From: Paludibacteraceae bacterium
GTDB taxonomy: Bacteria; Bacteroidota; Bacteroidia; Bacteroidales; Paludibacteraceae
Assembly: GCA_017546705.1 (NCBI GenBank)
Contig: JAFYSB010000063.1
Location: forward strand, 1 to 59,846
Direction of reading: 5' to 3'
Length of the DNA stretch: 59,846 nt
A program made the position numbers and the translations under genes. The notes beneath the pieces were generated by a model, which worked only from the letters and a program-made list of their open reading frames with translations, had not been told where the DNA came from and searched no databases. This document shows positions 16,564 to 57,616 of this stretch, piece by piece (position 1 is the first letter of the stretch; every line of letters starts with the position of its first letter).

Positions 16564-17103
16564 TTAATTTGTTTTTTGTTCTTGTATTTGAGTTTGCGCT
16601 TCAATTTCTCTCACCGTGCGCTCTACCACCTCTTCTAATTGATAGGTGGCAACCCCAAGGGGTTTGCAAATGAGTTCTATATGATGTCCCCAAGGTACAA
16701 AAGCAAATTTATCAGGCATCACCATTTCGTCAGCAGGCTGCTGACGATTTTGGTTTTCCATTTCGCCAACAGGTTGTTGGCGATTTGTAATCTGCTCATA
16801 ATAAAAGGAATACCATTGTCTCATATACTTGATGTTTGTATATGAGAAACCTGTCTGCTTTGGAAAAGCCTCCTTTAAATCAGCACTGAGTTGTTGCAAA
16901 ATATTACTTCCCCACTTGCTTTCTGCTTTGAGCGCAACAATATCTCTACCCAATGACCAATAGAACTCCAACATGCCATGATTGACATGTACGGCAGCTT
17001 TCGCTTGGCTCTGGCGATAGCGTTGCTTGAGTTCTGACAACCATTGGACGTAGTCAGAATCAGCCAACATGCTTGTTCTATTTATAAACTGGGGTGTGGG
17101 CAT
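16564..17103 (-). pseudogene. DUF1016 (YhcG-like) protein with the nuclease core deleted
   Basis: 179 residues against roughly 330-380 for the family. Residues 16-110 match the DUF1016 N-terminal domain (WLSELKQRYRQSQAKAAVHV, GRDIV, KYMRQWY). After PWGHHIEL, which normally leads into the PDDEXK nuclease domain, the sequence jumps to KPLGVATYQLEEVVE, which resembles the extreme C-terminus of full-length homologues. The frame is kept. The protein thus appears to be an internal deletion that removed the catalytic core. A stretch rich in NRQQP repeats just before the junction is encoded by two 21-bp palindromes. The remaining N-terminal domain could still bind partners, so it may not be inert. 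A promoter lies about 215 bases upstream, with a hairpin in the leader. Confidence 0.75.
16727..16783. repeat. Two 21-bp palindromes inside the DUF1016 gene
   Basis: 16727-16747: arms TCGTCAGCA/TGCTGACGA around GGC. 16763-16783: arms TCGCCAACA/TGTTGGCGA around GGT. Both have perfect 9-bp arms. Their starts are 36 bases apart, so both keep the same reading frame. Confidence 0.85.
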
Positions 17104-24113: not shown

Positions 24114-26090
24114 TTATGCATCCAACTCTTCATATACTGAATTCTTACTCTTGAATTCTGGTACAATTTGCTTCATTAACTTCACCGTTGGGAATACTTT
24201 ACCAGTCTTTGCTAATTGAATCAACGCTTCTATTTGCTCTGCAACTTCCTGATAATCATACTCTCGTACTTTCGCAACAAGAATTTTCTTATGCTTTGTT
24301 GGAATCGTTGTTTCTTTTTGATTCAACAATTCTTCATACAACTTTTCACCAGGACGCAATCCCGTATAAGTGATTTCGATGTCCTTACCAGGTTCAAAAC
24401 CTGCTAATCGAATCATATTCTTTGCCAAATCCGCGATCTTAACTGGTTGCCCCATATCAAAGCAGAATATTTCACCACCATTACCCAACGTTGCAGCTTC
24501 CAACACCAAGCAACTTGCCTCGGGTATCGTCATGAAATAGCGAATAATATCTGGATGAGTAACTGTGACAGGTCCACCAGCAGCAATTTGTTTCTTGAAA
24601 TAAGGTACTACCGATCCATTACTACCCAAAACATTGCCAAAGCGAGTTGTGATGAATTTAGTACAATTCGCATTTTCTTTTGCTGCTTTTAGGAATAATG
24701 ATTGTACATATATCTCCGCAATACGCTTTGAAGCACCCATCACATTTGTAGGATTGACGGCTTTATCTGTTGACACCATCACGAAACGTTTGGCATTGAA
24801 TTTAATCGCCATATCTGCTACATTCTTAGAGCCTTGCACGTTAGCGAGTATCGCTTGTGCAGGGAAATCCTCCATCAATGGCACATGCTTATATGCTGCT
24901 GCATGGAACACTACATGAGGATGATACTCCTCGAAAACCTCCTCTACCATATCCACATTTCTCACATCCGCAATTACTGGTACAAATTGCTGATTAGGAA
25001 ACTCTTTGCGCAAATCAACAGTCAAATCATGCAGAGGCGACTCTGCCATTTCAAAGAGCACTATCGTTTGTGGTTTGAATGCTGCCACTTGACGTACAAT
25101 TTCGCTACCAATGCTGCCAGCAGCACCAGTAACCATCACTGTTTGCCCCTCCAAGATTGTCCCCACATTTTCTGTATCCATCTCAATCACAGGACGTTCT
25201 AACAAATCTTCTACCTTAATGGATTCTATGCGACCTACTATAGTATTAATATTATCATTATTTTCCCCTATTGAGAAATCAGTAAAATAAGGAGTCGTTA
25301 ATATCCTTATATTATTATCAATAAATGGTTTCAAATCCACCAGCGGATTGATTTGCTTCATCTTTAAAGGCGATACAATAATATGTCGGATATGATGTTT
25401 TTTGAGGGTGTACATTAATTGTTCATTCAGAGGATAGACAATCAATCCCAACAAGTCATGCTGAATATCATCATACTTATCTGCAATAAAACCCACAGGA
25501 CGATATTGACTTTCTAGGTTAGATTGCAACATTTTTGCAATGGATAGTCCTGCTGATTTTGTACCATAGATCAGTACTTTATCTACCCCCTTGGATCTAT
25601 GAGAAATGTATTCAAAAACAGTTTTGATAATTACTCGCCATCCAAACAACAAAGTAATTGCTACAAATACATATATCACTAATACCGTAGTAAAAAAAGG
25701 AGGATTGATGTAATTTGTTACATATTTGACAATTAAATTGGCTAAAAACAAAAATAGACCATTTGCCACTACCGCAGCGGTGACCTTTAATGTATCAACA
25801 AAAGTAGAATAACGTAAAATACCAGAGTAGGTATGAAAAGCCCAGAAGAAAACTCCTTGTAATACGAGTACAAATATAGCCTGTCCCCATATTGGCATAC
25901 GAGCAGCCAAATCATACGTTAATATTTGACTACCAATCATATAGCTTACAACAAATGCAATCAATACGATTAACAAATCCAATAACAGCACTCCCCAACG
26001 AGGAAGATAACCGATATTAATCCAATGTGAAAACATGTCTGATTTGGATATATCTTTCATTCGTTTCATAATCTTTAGCATTTTAATCAA
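24114..26090 (-). CDS. Membrane-bound UDP-GlcNAc 4,6-dehydratase (PglF/WbpM/CapD type)
   Basis: 658 residues, normal for the long membrane form. Four to five hydrophobic segments lie within the first 155 residues. A Rossmann-like domain follows (KVLIYGTKSAGLSIAK), then the extended-SDR catalytic domain starting at VTGAAGSIGSEIVRQ. The active site reads STDKAVNPTNVMGASKR, with methionine in the place of the usual tyrosine, as in PglF and FlaA1. It removes water from UDP-GlcNAc to give the 4-keto-6-deoxy sugar. With the aminotransferase just upstream and the PglD-like acyltransferase it makes a UDP-2,4-diamino-2,4,6-trideoxyhexose route likely. It is last in the polysaccharide locus. Confidence 0.93.
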   Translation of the reverse strand: MIKMLKIMKRMKDISKSDMFSHWINIGYLPRWGVLLLDLLIVLIAFVVSYMIGSQILTYDLAARMPIWGQAIFVLVLQGVFFWAFHTYSGILRYSTFVDTLKVTAAVVANGLFLFLANLIVKYVTNYINPPFFTTVLVIYVFVAITLLFGWRVIIKTVFEYISHRSKGVDKVLIYGTKSAGLSIAKMLQSNLESQYRPVGFIADKYDDIQHDLLGLIVYPLNEQLMYTLKKHHIRHIIVSPLKMKQINPLVDLKPFIDNNIRILTTPYFTDFSIGENNDNINTIVGRIESIKVEDLLERPVIEMDTENVGTILEGQTVMVTGAAGSIGSEIVRQVAAFKPQTIVLFEMAESPLHDLTVDLRKEFPNQQFVPVIADVRNVDMVEEVFEEYHPHVVFHAAAYKHVPLMEDFPAQAILANVQGSKNVADMAIKFNAKRFVMVSTDKAVNPTNVMGASKRIAEIYVQSLFLKAAKENANCTKFITTRFGNVLGSNGSVVPYFKKQIAAGGPVTVTHPDIIRYFMTIPEASCLVLEAATLGNGGEIFCFDMGQPVKIADLAKNMIRLAGFEPGKDIEITYTGLRPGEKLYEELLNQKETTIPTKHKKILVAKVREYDYQEVAEQIEALIQLAKTGKVFPTVKLMKQIVPEFKSKNSVYEELDA

Positions 26091-26110: not shown

Positions 26111-27385
26111 TTACTGAATAATTGCCGATTTGATAGTTTCTACAATATAACGCACATCGTCATCTGTTACATATGGACCAGCTGGCAAGCACATTCCAAC
26201 TTTAAAGACCTCTTCACTAACACCATTCACATATGCAGGAGCATTTTTGTAAACAGGTTGTTTGTGCATTGGTTTCCATACAGGGCGTGCCTCAATCTTT
26301 GCATCCAGCATATACACACGCAATGCCTCCACATTATCGTTTGGTTGGCAATCGGTCACTGCACTATCTACCGCATGAATAACTCCGGCTGCACCACCCA
26401 CAGCGCTCTTAATTACCTCCTTGTAGGCATTCTCTTGACCTTTGATACGCAAAGTAGGTTCTAACTCAATGGTACAGAGCCAATAGTTGGAGTCGTAATC
26501 AGCAGAAGGGGATTTATGTAGAGTAATTCCCTCTATATCAGCCAATAACTCTTCATACAATGCTTGTACATGCTTGTGATGATCGATATGCGCTTGTGCC
26601 ACTGTCATTTGTCCGCGACCTATACCAGCGCATATGTTCGACATACGATAGTTGTATCCTACTTCCTCGTGTTGGTAATATGGATATGCTTCGCGTGCTT
26701 GAGTAGCATACCACATAACTTTATTTTTTGATTCTGCATCAGCGCAAACTAATGCCCCACCACCAGAGGTGGTGATCATCTTGTTTCCATTAAAAGAAAG
26801 TACACCGAACTTACCAAAGGTACCTAACATTTGTCCTTTGAACTTAGAGCCAAAGCCTTCAGCAGCATCCTCTATTACGGGAATGTCATATTTCTCTGCA
26901 ACAGCCATGATACGCTCACAATCATATGGCATACCATAGAGAGCTACAGGGATAATGGCTTTAGGCTTTTTTCCTGTTTTTTCAATACGATCCAAGATGG
27001 CTTTCTCCAATAATTCAGGGTCCATATTCCATGTATCGCGCTCAGAATCAATGAACACTGGCGTTGCTCCCAAATAAGTTATCGGATGAGAAGAAGCGCA
27101 GAATGTGAAGGATTGTACACACACTTCATCTCCTGGCTTCACGCCACAAGCAATCAACGCCAAATGTACAGCAGCAGTACCAGCAGAAAGAGCTACTACT
27201 TCTTTTTCTCTACCTTGTTGGTCTTTGCCAACAAATTGTTTGAGGTTATCTTCAAAAGCATTTACGTTTGGTCCCAATGGCACAACCCAATTGGTATCGA
27301 ATGCCTCTTTGATATATTTCTGCTCCAATCCTTCGTCTGACATATGTGCCAAACAGAGGTAAATCATGTTTCGTTCGTTACTCAT
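26111..27385 (-). CDS. DegT/PglE-type sugar aminotransferase
   Basis: 424 residues, PLP-dependent DegT/DnrJ/EryC1 family. The cofactor-binding stretch is ALSAGTAAVHLAL, the aspartate is in PVIEDAAEGFG, and the Schiff-base lysine is in SFNGNKMITTSGGGALV. The family puts an amino group on a 4-keto sugar nucleotide using glutamate. Placed directly before the 4,6-dehydratase gene, its substrate is most likely UDP-4-keto-6-deoxy-GlcNAc, giving a 4-amino sugar. Confidence 0.93.
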   Translation of the reverse strand: MSNERNMIYLCLAHMSDEGLEQKYIKEAFDTNWVVPLGPNVNAFEDNLKQFVGKDQQGREKEVVALSAGTAAVHLALIACGVKPGDEVCVQSFTFCASSHPITYLGATPVFIDSERDTWNMDPELLEKAILDRIEKTGKKPKAIIPVALYGMPYDCERIMAVAEKYDIPVIEDAAEGFGSKFKGQMLGTFGKFGVLSFNGNKMITTSGGGALVCADAESKNKVMWYATQAREAYPYYQHEEVGYNYRMSNICAGIGRGQMTVAQAHIDHHKHVQALYEELLADIEGITLHKSPSADYDSNYWLCTIELEPTLRIKGQENAYKEVIKSAVGGAAGVIHAVDSAVTDCQPNDNVEALRVYMLDAKIEARPVWKPMHKQPVYKNAPAYVNGVSEEVFKVGMCLPAGPYVTDDDVRYIVETIKSAIIQ

Positions 27386-27428: not shown

Positions 27429-28067
27429 TTAATTTGTTCCATCAAAGGTTGGCGCTGTAGCTTGACCTTCGGTAGAAATATCTTTACGATGTAGTACGTT
27501 ATTGATAGTCATAAAGATAATCTTTACATCTAATGCAAAAGATAGATGGTCAACATACCAAACGTCATATTCAAACTTCTTGGTATGTGTAATGGTGTTG
27601 CGTCCATTGACTTGTGCCCATCCTGTTATTCCAGGGCGTACCTCGTGACGGCGCATTTGTGTAGGTGTGTAGAGTGGCAAATATTTTACCAATAATGGAC
27701 GTGGTCCGATCAAAGCCATGTCACCCTTGAGGACATTGAATAACTGTGGCAATTCATCTAATGAAGTTGAACGAACAATGCGACCAACTTTGGTAAGTCG
27801 TTGAGCATCAGGCAGGAGCTTACCTTCCGCATCACGTTCATCTGTCATCGTTTTGAACTTGATGACGCGGAAAATTTTGGCATCTTTACCAGGACGCTCT
27901 TGCGTAAAGAAAGCACCAGCACCTTTGTTAGCAAAGTGTAGCCAAATAGTCACAACCAGCAGTATCGGACTTAAACATAGTAATGCGATGAGTGCGATAG
28001 TGAAATCTATTAATCGTTTGAAGAATTGTTTATACATATTATTAAACATGCCTAATGATAGCATCAT
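27429..28067 (-). CDS. Phosphoglycosyl transferase that starts the repeat unit (PglC/WcaJ family)
   Basis: 212 residues, the short monotopic form like PglC. One N-terminal membrane helix (FTIALIALLCLSPILLVVTIWL) is followed by FFTQERPGKDAKIFRVIKFKTM, with KFKTM characteristic, then the catalytic Asp-Glu pair in STSLDELPQLFNVLKGDMALIGPRP. It moves a sugar phosphate from UDP-sugar to undecaprenyl phosphate. PglC homologues accept UDP-diacetamido-bacillosamine, which fits the neighbouring dehydratase and aminotransferase. The frame overlaps the upstream glycosyltransferase by 26 bases; a later start such as Met7 would shrink this. Confidence 0.93.
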   Translation of the reverse strand: MMLSLGMFNNMYKQFFKRLIDFTIALIALLCLSPILLVVTIWLHFANKGAGAFFTQERPGKDAKIFRVIKFKTMTDERDAEGKLLPDAQRLTKVGRIVRSTSLDELPQLFNVLKGDMALIGPRPLLVKYLPLYTPTQMRRHEVRPGITGWAQVNGRNTITHTKKFEYDVWYVDHLSFALDVKIIFMTINNVLHRKDISTEGQATAPTFDGTN

Positions 28068-29256
28068 AAGTGTGTTGAATTGTATAATTATTTAGGTAGA
28101 ATTGATATCCTTGTTTCCCCATTGCATCTAAATCATTGTTGATAATCTTTTCTAGTGCTTTGTTAAGCTCTGCAACAGAGTTGCTAGGACACCAGAAGCC
28201 AAAACCATTAGCTTCTGCAATATACCCTAAATCACAATTTTTGTCAGTCGCAGCGATTATTGGCTTTCGTTGTGTTAAGTATGACAATAAGCGGCTTGGA
28301 TAATTAGGAATAGTAAACCGATAATCTAAGAAGATTAATCCAACATCACATGCACTAGCAAGTTGGTTATACTCTTCTTTTGGTAAACTGGCAAATAGAG
28401 ATACGGAACTAGGGTTGGCTTGCTGTGTCCATGTTTTTATTTTATTATATTCTGTTCCGTTGCCAATAATGACAAAATGGCATTTGGGGTGATTAGCATT
28501 TGCTTTTAAACATTCAATTAAGAATGGTATTCCTTGTGGTTTGCCAAGATTACCTCCGTATATTAAGATGATTTTATCTGTTGGTAAACCGTATTGCTGT
28601 AGAATATCATTTCTATTATACTCACAAAGAGGAATTAGGTCGCAACTATTAGGTGCTATCTCAACCTTGTTGTGAGGTATCTGTGGATTGTGTTCCAATA
28701 CATATTTTGTATTAGCGGGACTCATACAACCGATATGGTCGGATATGCGATATAATTCTTTTTCCTTTTTTCTAAAAAATGAATATAGTAATCCTTTGAT
28801 TCCTTTTTTTGTGAGCATCCCTAAATCAAGTGCATTTTGAGGAAATATATCTTTCAACAATAAGTATGTTACTGCAGTTGGATATTTCTGTTTAAGATGC
28901 TTGATAACATTTGTAAATGTAATAGGTGGTGTGGAATACAATATTAAATCAAAATGAGTGTTGTTCCAATACTTCTTGATTGCATTTATAAATTGATATT
29001 CCAATAGGATTTGTCCGACACCTTGCTCTATGGCGTTTGTCTTGGTTACATTTAAAGTCTTTATCCCCAAGATATGTACATTATCATTGTCGATGATATG
29101 TGTGTCTAATTTGGTTCTCCGTTGTAATGGTGTCGCAATGTGAACATTATGCCCTTGATTTGTGAATTTACGCATAAGATCAGTGTAGATACCATAGTTA
29201 TTGATATCTAACATTTGTGCCATAGTGAGAAAAAGGACATTCATATTAGATTTCAA
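28042..29256 (-). CDS. Glycosyltransferase family 4 (WbuB-like)
   Basis: 404 residues with a GT-B layout. The N-terminal half starts NVLFLTMAQMLDINNYGIYTDLMR, and the C-terminal donor domain has IILIYGGNLGKPQGIPFLIEC, VIIGNGTEYNKI and CDVGLIFLDYRFTIPNYPSRLLSYL. The order resembles WbuB-type enzymes that use UDP-FucNAc or related amino sugars, but the donor cannot be set. The start at Met1 or Met4 is uncertain; the first codons overlap the KAS III gene by 11 bases. Confidence 0.87.
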   Translation of the reverse strand: MKSNMNVLFLTMAQMLDINNYGIYTDLMRKFTNQGHNVHIATPLQRRTKLDTHIIDNDNVHILGIKTLNVTKTNAIEQGVGQILLEYQFINAIKKYWNNTHFDLILYSTPPITFTNVIKHLKQKYPTAVTYLLLKDIFPQNALDLGMLTKKGIKGLLYSFFRKKEKELYRISDHIGCMSPANTKYVLEHNPQIPHNKVEIAPNSCDLIPLCEYNRNDILQQYGLPTDKIILIYGGNLGKPQGIPFLIECLKANANHPKCHFVIIGNGTEYNKIKTWTQQANPSSVSLFASLPKEEYNQLASACDVGLIFLDYRFTIPNYPSRLLSYLTQRKPIIAATDKNCDLGYIAEANGFGFWCPSNSVAELNKALEKIINNDLDAMGKQGYQFYLNNYTIQHTYDAIIRHV

Positions 29257-30310
29257 TTAGTTCAGGAATAACAACATTATTAGCAGTAATAAGCATGGTT
29301 CCCCAGCTGAGGCCAAGACCGAAAGAAGAGCAAAGCATCTTCACGGGTTTGTTGCCTTGCATAGCATTAGCCGTGCGAGTGACCATGAGCGATGGGATAC
29401 TTGCACCTCCAAGATTTCCGAATTCTTCTAGATCGTAAGGTACTTTTTCGATAGGTAATTTAAGTTTCTTAACTACACGATCAACAATTAGTTTATTTGC
29501 TTGATGAATCAAGAAATAGTCTATGTCTGTATTTACATCAATCTGATAATCATCTATCATTTGTTGGATAGATTTTGGTGGACGAGAGATGGCGAATGTC
29601 AAGACAGACATACCATCAATTAACGTGTCTTTTGGTGCTCGAATGATACCATTGCCAAAATCTTCTTTAATGAATGAGTCGGGCGTAATACGATGACGGA
29701 AACCGCCATGAGGGGTCATTAGCGACTTGTGTCCACTACCCAGTGTTTGGAAATCGATTATAATATCTTCTGCAGATGTGTCGTACTCTAAAGCAATAGC
29801 TGTACCACAATCACCGAAGAGTGGAACACGACTTTTATCTTGTTGCGATCCCATACGTAAGGCGGTATCTCCTACAAGTAATAATGCACGATGAATATTA
29901 CCAGATGAGAGCATATTTCCTGCTACATTGATAGCATACAAGGTGCCACAACACCCCATAGGCAAATCGATGCAGAAACAATTAGTGGATAATCCCAAAC
30001 GGTCTTGCAAAAGACAAGAGGTAGGAGGAGTTGGATAGTAGTCACCTGTAACTGATTCAAAGACAAGCATATCAATGCTGTCTTTTTCCCACCCCATGTC
30101 TGTTAATAACTTCTCTGCTGCAGTTTGACACATGTCCGATGCGCATAAAGTTTCTGGACCTATGCGGCGTTCTTTGATTCCAACGGTATTGTCAAAGACA
30201 GTTGCTTCCTCTGGAGTAAAAAGGGGAATGTCAGCAGTCTTAACAATGTTTTTAGGCATACAAGCACTAACACCGGCCAAGCGTACGTTTTTAATTGTCC
30301 AACGTGCCAT
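29246..30310 (-). CDS. KAS III-like 3-oxoacyl-ACP synthase in the polysaccharide locus
   Basis: 354 residues with the thiolase fold of FabH. All three catalytic residues are present: Cys120 in DLPMGCCGTLYA, His269 in FLIHQANK and Asn299 in EFGNLGGASIP. It should join an acyl primer to malonyl-ACP, or transfer an acyl group as some FabH-like enzymes do. FabH for general lipid synthesis normally sits with plsX or fabD. Here it is between a glycosyltransferase and a dedicated carrier protein, so it most likely serves the sugar-modifying acyl module. Confidence 0.92.
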   Translation of the reverse strand: MARWTIKNVRLAGVSACMPKNIVKTADIPLFTPEEATVFDNTVGIKERRIGPETLCASDMCQTAAEKLLTDMGWEKDSIDMLVFESVTGDYYPTPPTSCLLQDRLGLSTNCFCIDLPMGCCGTLYAINVAGNMLSSGNIHRALLLVGDTALRMGSQQDKSRVPLFGDCGTAIALEYDTSAEDIIIDFQTLGSGHKSLMTPHGGFRHRITPDSFIKEDFGNGIIRAPKDTLIDGMSVLTFAISRPPKSIQQMIDDYQIDVNTDIDYFLIHQANKLIVDRVVKKLKLPIEKVPYDLEEFGNLGGASIPSLMVTRTANAMQGNKPVKMLCSSFGLGLSWGTMLITANNVVIPELIEI

Positions 30311-30326
30311 ATTTAGGATTACATTA

Positions 30327-30566
30327 TTAAAGTTCTATTCCGTTTTTTGTAAGAATCTCTTTACCTGCATTGTAGTTTGTACAAGCCATGATATCCTCAG
30401 GATCTAGCATGAGATCAAAGGTTTCTTCGAGTAAGGAGATAATGTTGAGTTGGTGAACAGAATCCCATTCGCTTACAGTTTCTTTGCTGAAGTTGTCTCC
30501 TAATTGATCAGCTGTCGCACCGAATACCTCGGTAAAAATGGCATTGTATTTCTCTAAGTTTGTCAT
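30327..30566 (-). CDS. Acyl carrier protein (first of two in the locus)
   Basis: 79 residues, acidic, four-helix carrier protein pattern. The phosphopantetheine site is Ser36 in EWDSVHQLNII. Helix II (NIISLLEETFDLML) and the DPEDIMACTNY segment are typical. It lies 3 bases downstream of the AMP-ligase gene and 16 bases upstream of the KAS III-like gene, so it is the likely partner of both. Confidence 0.9.
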   Translation of the reverse strand: MTNLEKYNAIFTEVFGATADQLGDNFSKETVSEWDSVHQLNIISLLEETFDLMLDPEDIMACTNYNAGKEILTKNGIEL

Positions 30567-30569
30567 ATT

Positions 30570-31982
30570 TTAATTAATTGATAATTTACTATAAAGTTTT
30601 TTTCCTGCTTCGTTTTTAGGTATTTCGTTGATGACACGAATCTGGAATGAAGTGGCAACGATATGCGTTTTTTGTACGAGTGTATCTTTTACTTCATTTT
30701 GTTTATCAGCATTGGTGATATAAACAATCATTTTTTCATCCGTACCTACACATGCACATTCTATCCCACAATCGGTTTGTACGATTTGTTCACATTCATC
30801 CAATCCGACGCGCATACCAAAAAGTTTGAGAAATCGTCCCATGCGACCAACGATATAGTAGCATCCATCTTCGTCAAAATATGCTAGGTCACCCGTACGA
30901 ATAAATCCATTGCGTTCATCGCCCAAAGCGAGATCGGATTGTTGGCGAGCATAGCCCATGGTTACGTTTTTGCCACAATAGCACATTTCACCTTCTGTGT
31001 GGGGAGTAGTGATAGGATTGCCATCGGTGTCAATGAGCGATAATTCTCCATTAGGAACAGCAATACCGATACTGCCCACTTTGTCTAGTGCCCATTTAGC
31101 TGGGAGATACGCCATGCGAGCTGTACATTCGGACTGACCGTAGGTGGCTATCCAACGTTTGCCATTGTCGCGACAATACTCTGCAAACTTGATATTGAGA
31201 TCGGTAGGCATTTTTCCTCCACCTTGTGTAAGTAGCTCCAAATGAGGGAGGTCCATACGGAAGAAACGCATAAGATTGAGAATCTGGAAACTATATGGAA
31301 CACCAGTAAAGGATGTAGCTCGTTGTTCTTTGAGGAACTTCCAGAAGTTAGGGTCTGTCATGCTAAGCCCTGTGATGAGGATAGTCGCACCTACTCGTAA
31401 GTGACTGAATACCATGGATAATCCCATGGTGTAGTAAAGTGGGAGCACCATTAGTGGGCGATCCGTTTCTTTTAACTCAAAGAAGGTGGAGATGTTGAGT
31501 CCAGCTGCTTCGATATTGTCGTATTTGTGACGAACGAGTTTTGGACTACCTGTACTACCAGATGTGGGAAGAAGATGGGAAAGTTCTTCGTGCAGTGGGC
31601 AGATGCCTTCTGATACTTTAGTTAGCTGATAACCAAATTGTTGATCAACTAATATTCCTTCTTTTTGGAAAGATGCTGGTGCGCAGATATAGGTAGGTTG
31701 ATAGGTGTCGAGCAGTTGCTGAAGAAGTGCCTCTTCCGTCTTAACATTGAGGATAAGTGGCACTAATTGGCGACTGCTGAGCATACCCATTGTCCATGCA
31801 ATGCCACCGATATTATTCTCTACGAGAAGAAAACATAGTGCGCGTTGTGGAACGAGATAGGTAATATGCTGAGATAGTTGAGTTATTTCAGCATATTTAA
31901 GTGTTGCACCATTGGAGTCTATAGCTGCAATTCGTTGTTGGTCAATATGTTGTAAGTTTAGAATCATTATATAGAAGCGCAA
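30570..31982 (-). CDS. AMP-dependent acyl ligase
   Basis: 470 residues, a shorter ANL-family member. The ATP loop is PTSGSTGSPKLVRH (about 142-155), ATYGQSECTARMAYL is the A5 region, RTGDLAYFDEDGCYYIVGR the hinge, and KNEAGKKLY the catalytic lysine. It activates a carboxylic acid and passes it to CoA or a carrier protein. The adjoining carrier protein gene suggests loading onto ACP. The first residues before MILNLQHIDQQ may not be used; a start there would reduce the 16-base overlap with the upstream SDR gene. Confidence 0.9.
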   Translation of the reverse strand: MRFYIMILNLQHIDQQRIAAIDSNGATLKYAEITQLSQHITYLVPQRALCFLLVENNIGGIAWTMGMLSSRQLVPLILNVKTEEALLQQLLDTYQPTYICAPASFQKEGILVDQQFGYQLTKVSEGICPLHEELSHLLPTSGSTGSPKLVRHKYDNIEAAGLNISTFFELKETDRPLMVLPLYYTMGLSMVFSHLRVGATILITGLSMTDPNFWKFLKEQRATSFTGVPYSFQILNLMRFFRMDLPHLELLTQGGGKMPTDLNIKFAEYCRDNGKRWIATYGQSECTARMAYLPAKWALDKVGSIGIAVPNGELSLIDTDGNPITTPHTEGEMCYCGKNVTMGYARQQSDLALGDERNGFIRTGDLAYFDEDGCYYIVGRMGRFLKLFGMRVGLDECEQIVQTDCGIECACVGTDEKMIVYITNADKQNEVKDTLVQKTHIVATSFQIRVINEIPKNEAGKKLYSKLSIN

Positions 31983-32695
31983 CCATCTACGCCGAGTATT
32001 TGTCCTGAAATATAGTTAGATCGGTCAGAAGCAAGGAAAGCGCACGCGTGTGCGATATCTTGTGGTGTGCCGAGACGACCTAAAGCAATTCGTTGGATGC
32101 GTTGGTCAATCTTGCTACCGTCAGACTCGTAAAGTTCTGCAAATCTTTCGGTTTGCACGATACCAGGAGCAACTGCATTCACGCGGATACCTTGTGATGC
32201 AAGTTCTTTGGCAGCCGATTTGGTCATAGAGATGATAGCACCCTTGGTTGCGGAGTAAGCGACTTGTCCTGGTGAACCGAGAACGGCAGTTACGGAAGCG
32301 ATATTGACGATACTTCCTTCTCCGTTTCGCGCCATGAGGCGACTTACGAGTTGGATAAGCTCGAGCACTGCAATAACATTAACGAGAAACATGCGCTCTG
32401 TTTCTTCACGCATAATCATGCCAATCTTGCGGTTGTAAACGATACCAGCATTGTTGACGAGGCAATTGATACGTCCTTCTGTTTTGAAAATCTGCATCAA
32501 GTTGGTTTTGACGCTAGCAGCGTCCGTGATGTCCATGATGACAGGGTGTATATGCTCGTTGTTCGTGGTAAACTCTTGTCTATCACAAGCATACACAATG
32601 GCACCATCATTGGCAAATTGCTCGGCGATTTGCTTGCCGATACCTTGCGCAGCACCTGTGATGATGCAGACTTTGTTTGTGAGTAGTTGGTTCAT
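31967..32695 (-). CDS. SDR reductase, FabG-like (second of two)
   Basis: 242 residues. The cofactor site is TGAAQGIGKQIA, NNAGIV is present, and the catalytic Ser-Tyr-Lys is in NIASVTAVLGSPGQVAYSATKGAI. The C-terminal SNYISGQILGVDGC is the FabG-type ending. It probably reduces a 3-oxoacyl-ACP to 3-hydroxyacyl-ACP or oxidises the reverse. Which stereoisomer it makes cannot be told from sequence. Confidence 0.9.
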   Translation of the reverse strand: MNQLLTNKVCIITGAAQGIGKQIAEQFANDGAIVYACDRQEFTTNNEHIHPVIMDITDAASVKTNLMQIFKTEGRINCLVNNAGIVYNRKIGMIMREETERMFLVNVIAVLELIQLVSRLMARNGEGSIVNIASVTAVLGSPGQVAYSATKGAIISMTKSAAKELASQGIRVNAVAPGIVQTERFAELYESDGSKIDQRIQRIALGRLGTPQDIAHACAFLASDRSNYISGQILGVDGCASI

Positions 32696-32697
32696 AA

Positions 32698-33444
32698 TCA
32701 GGATAATGTAAGACCGCCGTCTAATTTGATTTCAGTACCAGTAGTCCACGCTGATGCATCCGATAATAAATAAATGGTTGCATATGCAACTTCTTCTGGT
32801 TTGCCGTATCTTTTGAGAGGGTATTGTTCTAAGTTCGCTTTCTTTTGCTCCTCAGTGATAGGTATGTTGCAGAGTGCTTCTGTTTCAATTATAGCAGGAT
32901 TTACGCTGTTGAAACGAATTTGTTTTCCTGCTAATTCCAATGCAGCTGTACGCATAAATGCATCTAGTCCATTTTTTGTAATAGCATATAGAGCATTGGC
33001 CGTTGATACACGATATACACCAGCTGCGGATGATATAAAGACTACAGAAGCCCCTTTTGTAAGTTTTTTCTTTTTGATCAAATGTTTTGTTAGCAATATT
33101 GGTGCATGTAAATTAACTCGCTCAATCTCGTCTATTTTTTCCTTTGTTATGGCTTGAATAGGTGTTAATCCTAGTACACCAGCACTATGTACGCAGCCAT
33201 CTAATTCTGGGAGTAGATTGACTAATGTGATGATGTCTTCCTCGTTAGAAATGTCGGAAGCTATATACTGATGCTGTCCTTGTTTTAAAAGAGCTAATGT
33301 TTCTTGTAATCTTTCTATATTACGTCCAGTTAAAATTACATTAGCTCCCATATTACTAGACTCTATAGCAATTGAGCGCCCTATTCCAGAAGAGGCACCT
33401 GTTACTAAAATTGTTTTTCCTATGAGTGAAAAAGGATTGTGCAT
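32698..33444 (-). CDS. SDR reductase (first of two)
   Basis: 248 residues. TGASSGIGRSIA at the N-terminus, HSAGVLG, and the active site FISSAAGVYRVSTANALYAITKNGL. It ends with TTGTEIKLDGGLTLS. It is clearly different from the next SDR, so the two are not a recent duplication and may act at two steps or with two stereochemistries. Its stop codon lies 2 bases before the next gene and its start overlaps the end of the second carrier protein gene by one base. Confidence 0.9.
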   Translation of the reverse strand: MHNPFSLIGKTILVTGASSGIGRSIAIESSNMGANVILTGRNIERLQETLALLKQGQHQYIASDISNEEDIITLVNLLPELDGCVHSAGVLGLTPIQAITKEKIDEIERVNLHAPILLTKHLIKKKKLTKGASVVFISSAAGVYRVSTANALYAITKNGLDAFMRTAALELAGKQIRFNSVNPAIIETEALCNIPITEEQKKANLEQYPLKRYGKPEEVAYATIYLLSDASAWTTGTEIKLDGGLTLS

Positions 33445-33671
33445 TATTGCTTGCTAACAACTAGGTCAAATAATTCTTGAATGGTATTCGTTTTGCGCAT
33501 TTCTTCTGGTGGAAGAACAATGCCATACTCTTCATCTACCATAGTGATAACTAATAGAGCAACCAACGATGTCCATCCTTCTACTTGGCGAAAGTTGGTT
33601 TCAGGTGTCAATTCTACATTTAGTTCATCAAATTGATCTGTTACATTTTGAATAAAAAGTTGAATATCCAT
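33444..33671 (-). CDS. Acyl carrier protein with GWTSL active site (second in the locus)
   Basis: 75 residues, acidic. The modification site reads EGWTSLVALL: Ser35 is kept but the usual aspartate before it is threonine. Helices at both ends and the EEYGIVLPPEEMRK segment fit a carrier protein. Asp-to-Thr changes at this position occur in stand-alone carrier proteins of sugar or lipid modification loci. It is cotranscribed with both SDR genes. Confidence 0.85.
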   Translation of the reverse strand: MDIQLFIQNVTDQFDELNVELTPETNFRQVEGWTSLVALLVITMVDEEYGIVLPPEEMRKTNTIQELFDLVVSKQ

Positions 33672-33692
33672 AATTAGTTTAATTATAATGTG

Positions 33693-34322
33693 TTATAATA
33701 GTTTTTTTGCTGGGTTGCCTAGTACAGTAGTACCTTCTTTAACGCGACGAATAACAAAACTGCATGCAGCTACGCGCGAGTGACTTTCTATTGTGACATT
33801 GTGGCTAATCATTGCAGAAGTGTGAATATCAGCTTCGTCTTGTACAATAGTACCACCAACCAATGTAACATGGGTGTCAATTCTATTCCAGTCTCCTATT
33901 TGTGAATCATGTCCGATGACTGTGTAGGATTGGATCATATTGTATTTACCAATCTTAGCATCCGCTCCAATGGATGTGAACGCGCCAACAATTGTTCCTT
34001 CTCCAATTTTAACATTCGTTCCGATTCGAGCAGTATGGTGAATCATAGTCAGGAATTTTCCTCCTTTTGAGATGATCTCTTCCATACATTTGCGCCTAGA
34101 TTGCCCACCAATAGAACATACGAAAATATCTTCAGAATCCGGATTGTAGCCAGTGATTGGTGCAATAATAGGAGGGTAATTGTCAAAGTTTTCTAAAGCA
34201 GATATGTTATCATCAATGAAACCGCGTATATCATATTCTGTCCCATATCCATTGCTTTCTCGTGCTATGTCGTATATGGTACGTCCCATACCGCCTGCCC
34301 CTATGATAATTAAATGTTTCAT
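33693..34322 (-). CDS. PglD/NeuD-like sugar N- or O-acyltransferase
   Basis: 209 residues from the ATG at 34322. The frame is open further up to an ATG at 34361, but that ATG lies within the promoter, so it cannot be in the message. Residues 1-80 are the Rossmann-like UDP-sugar domain (MKHLIIIGAGGMGRTIYDIA). The rest is a left-handed beta-helix with hexapeptide repeats and the catalytic-type histidine in YTVIGHDSQIGD, as His125 in PglD. The end RRVKEGTTVLGNPAKKLL is typical. PglD acetylates the 4-amino group of UDP-bacillosamine. Here the neighbouring carrier proteins suggest that the donor may be an acyl-ACP. Confidence 0.9.
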   Translation of the reverse strand: MKHLIIIGAGGMGRTIYDIARESNGYGTEYDIRGFIDDNISALENFDNYPPIIAPITGYNPDSEDIFVCSIGGQSRRKCMEEIISKGGKFLTMIHHTARIGTNVKIGEGTIVGAFTSIGADAKIGKYNMIQSYTVIGHDSQIGDWNRIDTHVTLVGGTIVQDEADIHTSAMISHNVTIESHSRVAACSFVIRRVKEGTTVLGNPAKKLL

Positions 34323-34358
34323 GTAAGTTTGATAATAAATATTGATATTAAAAGCGTG

Positions 34359-34389
34359 CAAAGTTACAACTTTTTTTTGGATTACGCAA
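34359..34389 (-). promoter_or_regulatory. Internal promoter of the acyl module
   Basis: Minus strand: TTGC (34386-34389), 19-base spacer with eight A/T, TAACTTTG (34359-34366). It allows the acyltransferase-to-dehydratase half to be transcribed apart from the first half. Confidence 0.78.
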
Positions 34390-36722: not shown

Positions 36723-38078
36723 TTATTTTGATAAAGTTTGAATACGTTTTAATGGAAGTATCAATAAGTCTTTCCAACCAATAATTATACAAATGATTTG
36801 CATTCGTAAGATAGTATGATATCTTGGAATAAAAACATGTGACAAAAATCCAGTACAAAATGCGGTTATTACACTAGTAATGGCCGCCCCTTTAACTCCC
36901 CAGAGTGGGATTAACAATAAATTTAAACCAATAGATGTAATACATCCTATAATATTTCTTATTGCTACTAATTGTTGTTTCTTTTCAATAACAATCATTG
37001 CTCCTGTTGTTTGTGCAAAGGCATATCCAATGACTTTAAAGACCATGATTTGGAGTAATGCCACTGATGAAATATATTGGGGTCCAAAAGTATATTTAAC
37101 CAATGGAGAAGCAATCATGCTAATGATAACACATCCTACAACTGTACCCCATACGGTGAGATTCATAAATGCTTGAGCTTTTTTGGTATATTCATTTATT
37201 TTGTTTTCGTACAATTTGACCAAAATTGGTGTAATTGTCTGAGATAAGATGGTAGGGACAAATATGCATAATTCTGTAAACTTACCGGCTACAGAATAGA
37301 ATCCCACAGACTGCTTGTCAATCATGTTTCCAAGCATTACTTGATCTATTTTTTGATAGATAATTATTGCCGCTCCGCTAAGTAATAAAGGGAATGATTG
37401 CTTAATGAGATAAATCGCCGTTGCTTTGTCAAACTCCCATAATGAAACAAGTCCAATCTTTTTTCTATATGATGTAATATAACCGCCTGCTAATAGAATT
37501 GTATCAAATAAAGTTGCACAAATAAATCCCCAAAGAGGTGCATGTACCAATAACAAAATAATCTTGATTGCCGCTCCGATAATGGTGCGTAAAATTTCTG
37601 TCTTGACGATATATTCGTTCCAAACAATGGCTGTGAAATGATTTCGAATGACACTGAAAGTGTTCATCACAATGGATAGTGAATATATGTAAATCATCCA
37701 TCGTGTGAAAGTATCAGCTTCTGATAGTTCGGTTATCAAGATGATAACTCCAATAGTAAGTATTGCAAAAGCGAGTTTCAGCCCAAAAGCAGTACCTATA
37801 AATTTATCCTTATTTTCTGGTCTTCGAACTTCTTCTCTAATCTCAATACTATCTAGTCCAAAAGTTGCAAATACTTGGAATAGCATTACATAACTAAAAA
37901 CATAGTTCATTAATCCATATTGTTGTGGTCCTAAGTATCTAGCAACAAGTATGCCCACCAAGAGACCACCCAACAATGTGGTAATTTTCCCAACAACAGC
38001 CCAAATAAGATTCTTAATAACCTTCTTTTTTGCTGGTGACAGGTTGAATTTATCTATGATTTTATCTATAAGATTCAT
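36723..38078 (-). CDS. Flippase for lipid-linked repeat units (Wzx, MOP family)
   Basis: 451 residues with about 12 hydrophobic helices. The start (NLIWAVVGKITTLLGGLLVGILVARYLGPQQYGLMNYV) is the classic polysaccharide-transporter N-terminus, and YQKIDQVMLGNMID is another family mark. It moves undecaprenyl-linked repeat units to the periplasmic side. AT-rich like its neighbour. Confidence 0.92.
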   Translation of the reverse strand: MNLIDKIIDKFNLSPAKKKVIKNLIWAVVGKITTLLGGLLVGILVARYLGPQQYGLMNYVFSYVMLFQVFATFGLDSIEIREEVRRPENKDKFIGTAFGLKLAFAILTIGVIILITELSEADTFTRWMIYIYSLSIVMNTFSVIRNHFTAIVWNEYIVKTEILRTIIGAAIKIILLLVHAPLWGFICATLFDTILLAGGYITSYRKKIGLVSLWEFDKATAIYLIKQSFPLLLSGAAIIIYQKIDQVMLGNMIDKQSVGFYSVAGKFTELCIFVPTILSQTITPILVKLYENKINEYTKKAQAFMNLTVWGTVVGCVIISMIASPLVKYTFGPQYISSVALLQIMVFKVIGYAFAQTTGAMIVIEKKQQLVAIRNIIGCITSIGLNLLLIPLWGVKGAAITSVITAFCTGFLSHVFIPRYHTILRMQIICIIIGWKDLLILPLKRIQTLSK

Positions 38079-44990: not shown

Positions 44991-45884
44991 TTATTGTTTT
45001 ACATTCATTCTTTCCAAACATACTTTTAGTGATGTTGTCCAATAGGGCACTTTTACACTGAAAGTTTCTTTGATTTTTGTTTTATCTAATACAGAGTAAG
45101 ATGGACGCTTGACTGGTGATGGGAATTCATCGCTATGGCATGGTTGGATGTCGCAATCCGTATTGCCTGCGTACTCTGCGATCATCTTAGTAAAGTCAAA
45201 CCAACTGCAAACACCTTCGTTGCTATAATGGTACACGCCATCGTTTCCATCAAACTTGCGATTGCTAACAATCTCATAAATTGCAGCCGCCAAGTCATAC
45301 GCGTAAGTAGGTGTTCCTACTTGATCAAACACAACTTTTAGCTGTGGCTTGGTTGCCGTCAAATTGAGCATTGTCTTTACGAAGTTTTTACCAAACTCGC
45401 TATACAACCAAGCGGTACGGATGATTATATGATAGCAGCCTGATGCTAGAATATTTTGTTCGCCCTGCAATTTGGTTTTGCCATACACTCCCGTCGGAGT
45501 GCCCTTTTGATCTTCCTTGCAGGGGGTGTTGTATGGATCACCACCAAACACATAATCGGTGGACACATGGACCAATAATCCATCTACTTCTTTCATCGCA
45601 ACAGCCAAATTCTCAACGGCTTTCGCATTTAGCAGTTCGCAAAACACCTCGTCGGTCTCTGCCTTATCCACATTGGTATAAGCCGCACAGTTGATGATGC
45701 ACTTTACATCATTCTCTTGCACCATCTTGCGCACAGCATCCAATGACGTAATATCCAGCAGAGTGGTTTCTACCCCTTCTACTTCCACCACGTCGGTATA
45801 TATGTAGGCGTCGTGACTATCTTTAGCCACTATACGAATCTCGTTGCCGAGTTGTCCGTTTGCGCCTGTTACTAATATATTCAT
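44991..45884 (-). CDS. rfbD: dTDP-4-dehydrorhamnose reductase
   Basis: 297 residues. VTGANGQLGNEIRIVA is the RmlD N-terminus, VHVSTDYVFGG and VYGKTKLQGEQ give the catalytic Thr/Ser, Tyr and Lys. It performs the last step to dTDP-L-rhamnose. The usual dehydratase gene rmlB is not in this locus. Confidence 0.95.
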   Translation of the reverse strand: MNILVTGANGQLGNEIRIVAKDSHDAYIYTDVVEVEGVETTLLDITSLDAVRKMVQENDVKCIINCAAYTNVDKAETDEVFCELLNAKAVENLAVAMKEVDGLLVHVSTDYVFGGDPYNTPCKEDQKGTPTGVYGKTKLQGEQNILASGCYHIIIRTAWLYSEFGKNFVKTMLNLTATKPQLKVVFDQVGTPTYAYDLAAAIYEIVSNRKFDGNDGVYHYSNEGVCSWFDFTKMIAEYAGNTDCDIQPCHSDEFPSPVKRPSYSVLDKTKIKETFSVKVPYWTTSLKVCLERMNVKQ

Positions 45885-45890
45885 ATTTTT

Positions 45891-46481
45891 TTACTCCTGA
45901 TTCTTGGTTCCTTGTTCTTGATTCCAAACAAATGGCGAATCAAACTCTGCCAACTTTGGATGTTTTGTATCCTTCTCGCTGAGCAATGCCTCTTCCATTG
46001 TCAATCCCCAATCAATACCAAGCGATTCATCCAAAATCGAAATACCACCATCTACTTCTGGATGATAGAAGTTGTCACATTTATACTGGAATACCGCACT
46101 CTCACTTAGCACAGCGAAACCATGCGCAAACCCTTGAGGAATAAAGAATTGGCGATGATTTTCCTCTGTTAGCAACACCGCTACGTGTTGTCCGTAGGTA
46201 GGACTGCCCTTGCGGATATCTACCGCCACATCAATCACTTTGCCTTTCACACAACGTACCAATTTGCTTTGTGCATATGGTGGGCGTTGGAAATGCAAAC
46301 CACGCATTACGCCATATTTCGACATACTCTCGTTGTCTTGCACAAAGTGTATATCACCCACTTTCTCTTGGAACTCTCTCTCCGAAAAGCTCTCAAAGAA
46401 ATATCCACGAGCATCGCCAAACACCTTTGGCTCAATGATATACACGCCTTCTATCGCTGTCTTTATAACTTCCATAATCAA
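45891..46481 (-). CDS. rfbC: dTDP-4-dehydrorhamnose 3,5-epimerase
   Basis: 196 residues, a cupin. [36 protein letters not shown] with the catalytic histidine, and [16 protein letters not shown] are RmlC signatures. The start is either the first Met or Met3 ([12 protein letters not shown]), which fits homologues better. A few bases overlap rfbA. A short Gln/Glu-rich tail ([10 protein letters not shown]) encoded by a repeat-like stretch extends the C-terminus. Confidence 0.95.
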
Positions 46482-47383
46482 TCCAAATTCGCCTTACCCG
46501 TTTCTTTTACTTCGTCAATCACTTTCAACAGATACTGACCATATTGGTTCTTCAACATTGGCTGTGCCAACTCACGCATACGCTCTTCTGTGATCCATCC
46601 TTGACGGTATGCAATACCCTCCAAGCATGCCACTTTCAAGCCTTGACGCTTCTCCAAAACCTCAATATAGGTACTCGCTTCCGACAACGAGTCATGCGTA
46701 CCTGTATCCAACCATGCAAAGCCTCTACCTAAGGTCTGCACCTTCAACTCGCCATCCTTCAAAAACTCCTGATTCACAGTCGTAATCTCATACTCACCAC
46801 GAGCAGATGGTTTGATATTTGCTGCCACATCTACCACTTTATTTGGATAGAAATACAATCCCACTACTGCATAATTGCTCTTTGGATCTTGTGGCTTCTC
46901 TTCGATGCTCAAGCAGTTGCCCTCCTTATCAAACTCTGCCACACCATAACGCTCCGGATCGCTTACCCAGTAGCCAAACACAGTCGCTTTCTTATCTTCT
47001 TCAGCAGCACGAACTGCCTCTTTCAGCATACCCGTAAAGCCCGAACCATGGAAGATATTATCGCCCAACACCAAGCAAGCGCTATCATCACCTATGAACT
47101 CCTTACCAATCGTGAATGCTTGTGCCAAACCGTCTGGCGAAGGTTGCTCAGCATAAGTGAAGTTCACTCCGTAGTCACTACCATCACCCAACAAACGCTT
47201 AAAACCTGGTAAATCGTATGGCGTTGAGATAATCAAAATATCACGAATACCTGCCAACATCAGCACGCTGATAGGGTAATAAACCATTGGTTTGTCATAA
47301 ATAGGCATCAATTGTTTACTAATTCCTTTGGTGATAGGGTACAAACGTGTTCCCGAACCTCCTGCTAATACAATTCCTTTCAT
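46478..47383 (-). CDS. rfbA: Glucose-1-phosphate thymidylyltransferase
   Basis: 301 residues, standard RmlA length. The nucleotide-binding start is [20 protein letters not shown], followed by [38 protein letters not shown] and LDTGTHDSL. It makes dTDP-glucose from dTTP and glucose-1-phosphate and opens the polysaccharide operon, directly after the main promoter. Confidence 0.96.
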
Positions 47384-47433: not shown

Positions 47434-47465
47434 CAAAGGTACAACTTTTTTTTAACTTATGCAAA
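47434..47465 (-). promoter_or_regulatory. Main promoter of the polysaccharide locus
   Basis: Minus strand: TTTG (47462-47465), 20-base spacer with eight A/T, TACCTTTG (47434-47441). The leader to rfbA is about 45 bases. I see no inverted repeats of the kind that flank invertible capsule promoters, and no UpxY-type antiterminator gene. Confidence 0.82.
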
Positions 47466-57577: not shown

Positions 57578-57616
57578 CAGGCTAAAGGGTGTCTTTAACT
57601 AAAATCCTAATTGATA

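What the first reader, a model, noticed from the sequence alone, without database searches (positions are those of the whole stretch)
29246..34389. Self-contained acyl-making module inside a capsule locus, possibly for 3-hydroxyacyl decoration of an amino sugar
Seen: from one internal promoter, a PglD/NeuD-like acyltransferase, a carrier protein, two SDRs, an AMP ligase, a second carrier protein and a KAS III-like enzyme with an intact Cys-His-Asn triad. Known: PglD-type enzymes acylate the 4-amino group of UDP-sugars, FabH-type enzymes make 3-oxoacyl-ACP, FabG-type SDRs reduce them, and 3-hydroxybutyryl groups occur on amino sugars of many O-antigens. Inference: the module makes a hydroxyacyl-ACP (C4 or longer) as donor for the 4-amino sugar made by the dehydratase and aminotransferase at the end of the locus. 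The ligase would load a scavenged acid or recycle a released one.
Basis: partly seen in the sequence, partly recalled or inferred. Interest (0 to 1): 0.72.

Follow-up and report, generated by a model that had tools for sequence, protein, structure and literature searches.

The report
Capsule-sugar acyl-chain building cassette
A gut bacterium's surface-polysaccharide gene cluster carries its own small assembly line that most likely builds a short hydroxylated acid on carrier proteins and attaches it to an amino sugar; the idea has known relatives, but I found no account of the ligase-primed, two-carrier version seen here and in related gut bacteria.

Summary
Between 29246 and 34389 (minus strand) lie seven open genes: PglD-type acyltransferase, carrier protein, two SDRs, AMP ligase, second carrier, KAS III, preceded by a Bacteroidales-type promoter match. 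Catalytic residues are kept in the relatives aligned (25 to 121 rows each). The same order recurs in 31 of 54 non-redundant relative loci across several Bacteroidales families. The locus makes the same three sugars as the Flavobacterium psychrophilum O-polysaccharide, whose Qui2NAc4N carries 3,5-dihydroxyhexanoyl; P. syringae vioS/vioR/acp/vioB is a second precedent. New here: (i) close relatives of the acyltransferase are carrier-cassette-linked (6 of 6), distant ones mostly not (5 of 24); (ii) ligase, second carrier and the NAD-type SDR form a separable loading unit (one locus has them with the acyltransferase but no KAS III, first carrier or other SDR); (iii) the ligase pocket is nearly invariant, polar and lacks the amino-acid Asp, so it probably primes KAS III with a small oxygenated acid; (iv) the cassette often has its own promoter. 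The acid and final acyl group remain unknown. New variant of a known kind.

The parts
34359..34389 (-). Bacteroidales-type promoter match TTG-N20-TAACTTTG heading the cassette
   Evidence: consensus recalled; same motif upstream of AT in 18 of 38 relatives versus 3 of 452 for other genes
33693..34322 (-). AT: PglD/NeuD/VioB-type left-handed beta-helix N-acyltransferase (ORF can also start at TTG 34361)
   Evidence: PglD_N and Hexapep over cut-off; TIGR03570 158.1 bits, cut-off 160.8; best solved relative VioB 7txp, 3e-23; His138 in 25 of 25 aligned rows
33444..33671 (-). ACP1: acyl carrier protein (WTSL)
   Evidence: PF00550 27.7 bits over cut-off; Ser in 85 of 85 rows
32698..33444 (-). SDR-A: FabG-like reductase, NADP(H)-type (Arg41 after beta-2)
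   Evidence: Ser/Tyr/Lys 87 of 87, Arg 74 of 87 (one of 88 rows left out as too distant)
31967..32695 (-). SDR-B: FabG-like SDR, NAD(H)-type (Asp38 after beta-2); goes with ligase and ACP2
   Evidence: Asp38 and Ser/Tyr/Lys 50 of 50 (4 of 54 rows left out as too distant); present with ligase, ACP2 and AT but without KAS III in L135
30570..31982 (-). LIG: AMP-forming acid ligase (TTG start; first ATG at 31967)
   Evidence: PF00501 127.3 bits; TGD, Arg380 and Lys461 in 59 of 59, Arg289 in 56 of 59
30327..30566 (-). ACP2: second carrier protein (WDSV), no Pfam/NCBIfam hit
   Evidence: W and S in 61 of 61, D in 60 of 61 rows
29246..30310 (-). KAS III-like condensing enzyme, Cys120-His269-Asn299; only KAS III found in this 90% complete genome
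28042..29256 (-). WcaI-like glycosyltransferase, overlapping the end of KAS III
27429..28067 (-). PglC-type initiating sugar-phosphate transferase
   Evidence: PF02397 209.6 bits; >=60% identical homologue in 42 of 54 relative loci
26111..27385 (-). PglE/LegC-type aminotransferase (4-amino sugar)
   Evidence: TIGR04181 335 bits, cut-off 420
24114..26090 (-). PglF/WbpM-type UDP-GlcNAc 4,6-dehydratase
   Evidence: PF02719 389.8 bits
41531..44975 (-). fnlA-fnlB-fnlC type genes (UDP-L-FucNAc; gene names inferred from the Pfam set)
44991..47383 (-). rmlD, rmlC, rmlA (dTDP-L-rhamnose; no rmlB seen in the locus, not sought elsewhere)

Best explanation
The unit makes a short 3-hydroxyacyl group on carrier proteins and AT transfers it to the 4-amino group of UDP-2-acetamido-4-amino-2,4,6-trideoxyglucose before the PglC-like transferase loads that sugar on the lipid carrier as first sugar of the repeat. 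Proposed steps: LIG adenylates a small, oxygen-rich acid and loads ACP2; SDR-B (NAD type) sets its oxidation state; KAS III condenses it with malonyl-ACP (malonyl from FabD); SDR-A (NADP type) reduces the 3-keto group; AT hands the 3-hydroxyacyl group to the sugar. Shown: gene content, intact catalytic residues, conserved order, close AT relatives tied to carrier cassettes, separability of LIG/ACP2/SDR-B (one locus). Inferred: order of reactions, which ACP carries what, identity of acid and product (C4-C6, possibly a dihydroxyacyl).
For: Open genes and kept motifs. Same order in 31 of 54 non-redundant loci holding LIG and a close KAS III; five more are cut by contig ends. In a draw of 295 genomes of the order with AT as query, the 6 fetched AT relatives at >=36% identity (window included) all had an ACP, KAS III or LIG within 1.5 kb, and 5 of the 24 under 36% did (p = 0.0008, or 0.002 without the window; the 36% line was drawn after seeing the table). 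AT tree: 33 of 35 rows from loci with LIG and one KAS fall in one supported clade; 6 changes against 27.1 shuffled. Where an extra KAS is present AT is divergent (<40%) in 5 of 7, against 3 of 36 without (p = 0.001). L135 has AT-SDRB-LIG-ACP2 without KAS III, ACP1, SDR-A; L117 (Flavobacterium paronense) and others have ACP, KAS, SDR and AT without LIG. Same three sugars as the F. psychrophilum polysaccharide with 3,5-dihydroxyhexanoyl. Only one match in the genome spans the whole PglD/NeuD model.
Against: No product, substrate or expression data. L074 and L091 keep the window-type AT with an extra KAS; on the KAS III tree only 3 of 4 independent pairs support AT following KAS count (p = 0.25). 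Among LIG-less two-KAS loci AT does not cluster at all (10 changes, 9.6 when shuffled), and the other AT clade holds LIG-less loci with one to four KAS, L041 and L108 with one. The window's AT clade also holds L035 (one KAS, only a distant ligase-like ORF) and L103 (two KAS, no LIG), so the group may be ordinary 3-hydroxybutyryl. Of 13 loci with an extra KAS, 6 show no PglD-like AT. L135 is one locus in an 86% complete genome; a KAS elsewhere could serve it. The locus has four glycosyltransferases and a pyruvyltransferase besides the first transferase, so its repeat is probably not the F. psychrophilum trisaccharide. KAS III and AT fall below curated family cut-offs. Loci were fetched through KAS III, which favours cassette-linked AT; one search is free of that.
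Confidence: 0.65

Rival explanations
1. The product is a plain known group (3-hydroxybutyryl, or 3,5-dihydroxyhexanoyl as in F. psychrophilum) primed from acetyl-CoA or 3-hydroxybutyryl; the ligase only salvages the free acid.
For: Same three sugars as the F. psychrophilum repeat; vioS/vioR/acp are ascribed to 3-hydroxybutyryl; A. baumannii capsules carry QuiNAc4N with 3-hydroxybutanoyl; L103 (no LIG) and L035 (only a distant ligase-like ORF) share the AT clade.
Against: LIG, ACP2 and SDR-B are kept together in one order in 31 of 54 loci with a nearly fixed pocket, more than a salvage accessory would seem to need; no Trp at the KAS III column that matches the CoA-stacking Trp of E. coli FabH, among the 120 of 121 rows shown (role recalled).
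Confidence: 0.2
2. LIG loads malonate (malonyl-ACP2 synthetase), supplying the extender, and KAS III condenses it with acetyl-CoA to give 3-hydroxybutyryl.
For: Malonyl-CoA synthetases are among its solved relatives; a pocket Arg could bind the second carboxylate.
Against: FabD is present in the genome; L135 keeps LIG, ACP2, SDR-B and AT with no KAS III nearby to use malonyl; the Arg seems to sit at another position than the MatB arginines (recalled, not tested).
Confidence: 0.07
3. AT is an ordinary acetyl-CoA PglD and the carrier genes serve some other acylation (O-acylation, lipid or small molecule).
For: AT scores 158.1 bits with the NeuD/PglB/VioB acetyltransferase model, just under its cut-off; some loci with the ligase cassette have other aminotransferases or a GNAT (L094) in place of a PglD-like AT.
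Against: AT relatives at >=36% identity are cassette-linked in 6 of 6; AT lies next to ACP1 behind one promoter match.
Confidence: 0.06
4. The KAS III is the cell's fatty-acid initiation enzyme that happens to lie in the capsule locus.
For: It is the only KAS III found in this genome.
Against: 24 of 61 genomes of the genus (drawn at 90% completeness or more) have no PF08545 match at all, so the genus seems to do without; the gene moves with the cassette; TIGR00747 score 159.7 is far below cut-off 292.1.
Confidence: 0.02

Closest known systems
Flavobacterium psychrophilum O-polysaccharide R1 genes wfpC-wfpG (PMC6519341: abstract, passages and Discussion read)
   Same: PglD-type acyltransferase, ACP, 3-ketoacyl synthase and reductase with pglE/pglF, fnl and rml genes in one cluster; PglC-type first transferase; product on Qui2NAc4N known to be 3,5-dihydroxyhexanoyl
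   Different: Two synthases, one reductase, one ACP and no ligase named there; here one KAS III, two SDRs, two carriers and an AMP ligase, more glycosyltransferases and a pyruvyltransferase. The wfp functions are predictions in that paper. F. psychrophilum's own sequence was not compared here
Pseudomonas syringae viosamine island vioS, vioR, acp, vioB (PMC3927599: passages read)
   Same: KAS III, ketoacyl-ACP reductase, ACP and VioB-type transferase are ascribed to a 4-N-(3-hydroxybutyryl) amino sugar; deletion of vioR removes that sugar from the glycan
   Different: dTDP sugar, flagellin glycan, one carrier, no ligase, one reductase; no vioS or acp mutant in the passages read
Acinetobacter baumannii capsule module qhbCB/gdr, QuiNAc4N with 3-hydroxybutanoyl (PMC9676051: passages read)
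   Same: Same sugar; acetyl (qhbAB) or 3-hydroxybutanoyl (qhbCB) goes with the gene variant
   Different: No carrier, KAS or ligase genes named for that module in the passages read
Keto-acid loading modules with A and KR domains (cereulide, valinomycin synthetases; recalled)
   Same: Adenylating enzyme without the amino-acid Asp, reductase and carrier acting together on a loaded acid
   Different: Here separate proteins, no condensation domain, followed by a KAS III; the acid is unknown
Vibrio cholerae O1 tetronate genes (recalled, not checked: one search listed two papers that I did not read)
   Same: Carrier- and ligase-type genes thought to serve acylation of an amino sugar
   Different: No KAS III recalled; different acid

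Membership tests
ACP-dependent N-acyl sugar cassettes (wfp / vio type) | PglD/VioB-type acyltransferase in a locus with 4-amino-sugar genes | tested here: met
ACP-dependent N-acyl sugar cassettes (wfp / vio type) | Dedicated ACP with phosphopantetheine Ser | tested here: met
   Ser in 85 of 85 ACP1 and 61 of 61 ACP2 rows
ACP-dependent N-acyl sugar cassettes (wfp / vio type) | KAS III with Cys-His-Asn and a ketoacyl reductase | tested here: met
   121 of 121 KAS III rows; SDR Ser/Tyr/Lys 87 of 87 and 50 of 50
ACP-dependent N-acyl sugar cassettes (wfp / vio type) | No ligase and no second carrier; two synthases in wfp | tested here: not met
   LIG and ACP2 present, one KAS III: hence a variant, not a wfp or vio system
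ACP-dependent N-acyl sugar cassettes (wfp / vio type) | 3-hydroxyacyl amide on the amino sugar | not testable with these tools
   needs NMR/MS
NeuD/PglB/VioB acetyltransferase (TIGR03570) | Curated model score | tested here: not met
   158.1 bits against 160.8, just below; PglD_N of Pfam is met
NeuD/PglB/VioB acetyltransferase (TIGR03570) | Conserved beta-helix His | tested here: met
   His138 in 25 of 25 rows; equivalence to PglD His125 recalled
Housekeeping FabH (TIGR00747) | Curated model score | tested here: not met
   159.7 bits against 292.1
Amino-acid adenylation domain (NRPS/DltA type) | Asp that binds the alpha-amino group | tested here: not met
   Thr185 aligns with the Asp of LgrA module 1; Thr in 52, Ser in 3, Asp in 2 and Ile in 1 of 58 rows with a residue there
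AMP-forming ligase (ANL) superfamily | P-loop, TGD, Arg and catalytic Lys | tested here: met

The most novel reading that the evidence does not exclude
LIG, SDR-B and ACP2 are a free-standing loading unit (an adenylating enzyme, a ketoreductase and a carrier acting in trans, like a keto-acid module of a peptide synthetase taken apart) that primes a KAS III with an oxygenated acid, so that gut Bacteroidales write a so far unseen dihydroxyacyl amide into their capsules; adding KAS genes and exchanging the acyltransferase changes the group, giving a mobile, combinatorial acyl code on the first capsule sugar.
Probability: 0.27. Interest if true: 0.65.

Novelty: new variant of a known kind. Interest (0 to 1): 0.5.

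Why it matters
Capsules shape how gut Bacteroidales meet phages, antibodies and host lectins, and acyl groups on sugars can be strong epitopes (in F. psychrophilum the R-group genes change LPS antigenicity). If right, this links a gene cassette found in Bacteroides cellulosilyticus, B. fluxus, Butyricimonas, Xylanibacter and uncultured rumen and gut species to a testable chemical group, and may let N-acyl groups be read in part from gene content. It would also show type-II polyketide-like chemistry primed by a ligase at work on a surface sugar.

Tried and rejected
Sigma-70 scan of the region: 21 sites against 25.7 in shuffles, uninformative for Bacteroidales. The KAS III as a housekeeping FabH was considered and rejected. 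A fatty or aromatic acid for the ligase was thought less likely because many pocket positions are Tyr/Thr/Ser/Gln/Arg; this rests on sequence alignment only. Guessing the exact acid from solved ligases failed: the nearest (oxalate, succinylbenzoate, malonate, luciferin, 4-coumarate ligases and peptide-synthetase domains) span many substrates. Relatives of the ligase next to transketolase, LuxE and LuxC genes (L138-L141) did not reveal the acid. Papers on Campylobacter FabH2/Cj1307/Cj1308 and on tetronate were listed, not read. Searches whose listed rows, judged by title and start of abstract, held no account of this ligase-containing cassette: 2 of 2 papers listed; 2 of 2; 15 of 81; 10 of 48; PMC open-licence papers only. 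A first Fisher test used 6 of 24; the right count is 5 of 24 and was redone. Rows dropped: 8 duplicate loci (L055, L061, L062, L064, L066, L067, L100, L120); from the AT tree also L150 (fused), L144 and L162 (duplicates), L068 and L104 (cut short) and L032 (111 bits), and L136 was not put in; one search left out 13 of 56 loci with no AT seen.


Full report
What is there. The window is contig C70 of a 2.1 Mb draft genome, 90% complete; the nearest named relatives by KAS III are uncultured rumen and faecal Bacteroidales, several titled Paludibacteraceae. From 47383 down to 24114 the minus strand holds one polysaccharide locus: rmlA, rmlC, rmlD, three fnl-type genes for UDP-L-FucNAc, three glycosyltransferases, Wzx-, Wzy- and pyruvyltransferase-like genes, the seven genes of the finding, a WcaI-like glycosyltransferase, a PglC-type first transferase, a PglE/LegC-type aminotransferase and a PglF-type dehydratase. 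The seven genes are open and packed, some overlapping.

Is each part sound? AT has PglD_N and hexapeptide repeats, its best solved relative is VioB, and its beta-helix His138 is in 25 of 25 aligned rows. ACP1 and ACP2 keep the carrier Ser in 85 of 85 and 61 of 61 rows; ACP2 is not recognised by Pfam or NCBIfam. KAS III has Cys120, His269 and Asn299 in 121 of 121 rows. Both SDRs keep Ser, Tyr and Lys (87 of 87 and 50 of 50, one and four distant rows left out); SDR-B has Asp after the second strand in 50 of 50 (NAD type) and SDR-A Arg in 74 of 87 (NADP type) (meaning of these residues recalled). LIG keeps the P-loop, TGD, Arg380 and Lys461. Rows include the window.

Promoter. A TTG-N20-TAACTTTG match at 34359-34389 lies just before AT (Bacteroides consensus recalled). 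On the locus strand the other two matches are at 47434-47464, before rmlA, and at 37085-37114, inside the Wzx-like gene; the window has 27 such matches in all and no shuffle control was run. Among relatives with LIG the motif is within 130 bases upstream of AT in 18 of 38, and upstream of the other eight gene kinds in 3 of 452; those other genes are mostly packed, so part of the contrast is gap against coding sequence. The cassette, with the first-sugar genes behind it, is probably its own transcription unit in many loci.

Spread. A scan with an 18-sequence KAS III alignment gave 78 named loci, the best of 349, among them Bacteroides fluxus, B. timonensis, B. stercorirosoris, B. cellulosilyticus, Butyricimonas, Xylanibacter, Muribaculaceae and, further off, Flavobacterium. 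With 20 loci from unnamed relatives and 8 duplicates removed, 54 loci hold LIG and a close KAS III (>=55% identity): 31 have AT-ACP1-SDRA-SDRB-LIG-ACP2-KAS3 (in L089 and L090 with a distant AT), 3 the same without an AT directly in front, 4 have KAS III before LIG, 9 have an extra KAS between ACP1 and SDR-A, and 7 are other, of which 5 are cut near a contig end. A PglC-like transferase (>=60%) or PglE-like aminotransferase (>=50%) is in 43 of 54. LIG is rare: 8 of 393 genomes of the order, own genome included, at E <= 1e-50, with at most four candidates scored per genome.

Does AT belong to the carrier genes? In a separate draw of 295 genomes with AT as query, 34 matches were listed and 30 loci fetched. 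The 6 at >=36% identity, the window included, all have ACP, KAS III or LIG within 1.5 kb; of 24 under 36%, 5 do, and 4 more have only an SDR-A-like gene (p = 0.0008; 0.002 without the window; the 36% line was drawn after seeing the table). On a quick tree of 84 ATs, the 35 rows with LIG and one KAS need 6 changes against 27.1 when shuffled; 33 of them lie in one supported clade with the window. That clade also holds L143 (the AT of L135), two rows with LIG and two KAS (L074, L091), L103 (two KAS, no LIG) and L035 (one KAS and a distant ligase-like ORF). Three ATs from loci with LIG and two KAS (L038, L058, L088) lie in another supported clade with LIG-less loci of one to four KAS, Flavobacterium paronense L117 among them. 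LIG-less two-KAS rows do not cluster (10 changes, 9.6 shuffled). In counts, 3 of 36 loci without and 5 of 7 with an extra KAS have a divergent AT (p = 0.001), but on the KAS III tree only 3 of 4 independent pairs agree (p = 0.25); 13 of 56 loci had no AT to count, 6 of them with an extra KAS. So AT is tied to carrier cassettes; that it reads chain length is only suggested.

What does the ligase part do? Conversely, L117 and other loci have ACP, KAS and SDR with AT but no LIG. The two halves thus seem separable, and SDR-B goes with LIG. The LIG pocket columns hardly vary in the close class (Tyr184, Thr185, Met186, Ser189, Thr226, Gln253, Arg289); Thr replaces the amino-acid Asp of peptide synthetases (alignment to LgrA), and Arg289 lies at a specificity position (GrsA numbering recalled). 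I read this as one fixed, small, oxygen-rich acid, loaded on ACP2 and adjusted by SDR-B. Which acid is not known. The KAS III column that matches the CoA-stacking Trp of E. coli FabH (recalled, matched by eye) has no Trp among the 120 of 121 rows shown, which fits a carrier-bound rather than CoA-bound starter but does not prove it.

Supply. The genome has FabD and one phosphopantetheinyl transferase, so malonyl-ACP and holo-carriers can be made. The cassette KAS III is the only one found, and 24 of 61 genomes of the genus have none. Only one match in the genome spans the whole PglD/NeuD model.

Against what is known. F. psychrophilum O-polysaccharide is built of L-Rha, L-FucNAc and D-Qui2NAc4NR with R = 3,5-dihydroxyhexanoyl; its authors ascribe R to two 3-ketoacyl-ACP synthases, an ACP, a reductase and a PglD homologue, as a prediction. 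The locus here makes the same three sugars, but has four further glycosyltransferases and a pyruvyltransferase, so the repeat is probably larger. In P. syringae, KAS III (vioS), reductase (vioR), ACP and VioB are ascribed to 3-hydroxybutyryl-viosamine, and deletion of vioR removes that sugar. In A. baumannii capsules, QuiNAc4N carries acetyl or 3-hydroxybutanoyl by gene variant. None of these is said there to have the ligase and second carrier. Four literature searches listed no paper on such a cassette, but two of them listed only the top of longer lists (15 of 81, 10 of 48), and the library holds open-licence papers only.

Verdict. It is a new variant of a known kind: an ACP-borne acylation cassette with an added ligase-driven loading unit. 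The chemistry of the acid and the final group must come from experiment.

Noticed in passing
genome G000 and 60 genus relatives: Many genomes of this genus have no KAS III (PF08545) match at all: 24 of 61. How they start fatty-acid synthesis, or whether they take up fatty acids, is open.
   Followed up: partly
L138:5957-10204, L139:6074-11355, L140:7402-12079, L141:3-5359: Relatives of the ligase (about 39-46%) with, in different mixtures, an SDR, an ACP, a split transketolase (Pfam-tested in L138 only; L139 and L141 by the look of the sequence), LuxE (L139) and LuxC (L140, L141): possibly a pathway that reduces an activated acid and adds a two-carbon ketol.
   Followed up: partly
L092:4593-15634: A longer set with two ligases, two KAS III and several carriers and SDRs in one run, like a small dispersed polyketide line.
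   Followed up: no
L091 and L093: Butyricimonas loci with an extra KAS, reductase and a second ACP1-type carrier; L093 also has an acyl transferase domain protein (PF00698), suggesting a bigger chain-building line.
   Followed up: no
L089, L090, L094, L101: The same ligase cassette in loci with other aminotransferases (25-33% to the PglE type), with a divergent PglD-like enzyme (L089, L090) or a GNAT (L094), so the acyl group may go to other amino sugars.
   Followed up: partly
window 57611-58636 and 16564-17103: RhuM-family and DUF1016_N genes elsewhere in the window, outside the locus.
   Followed up: no
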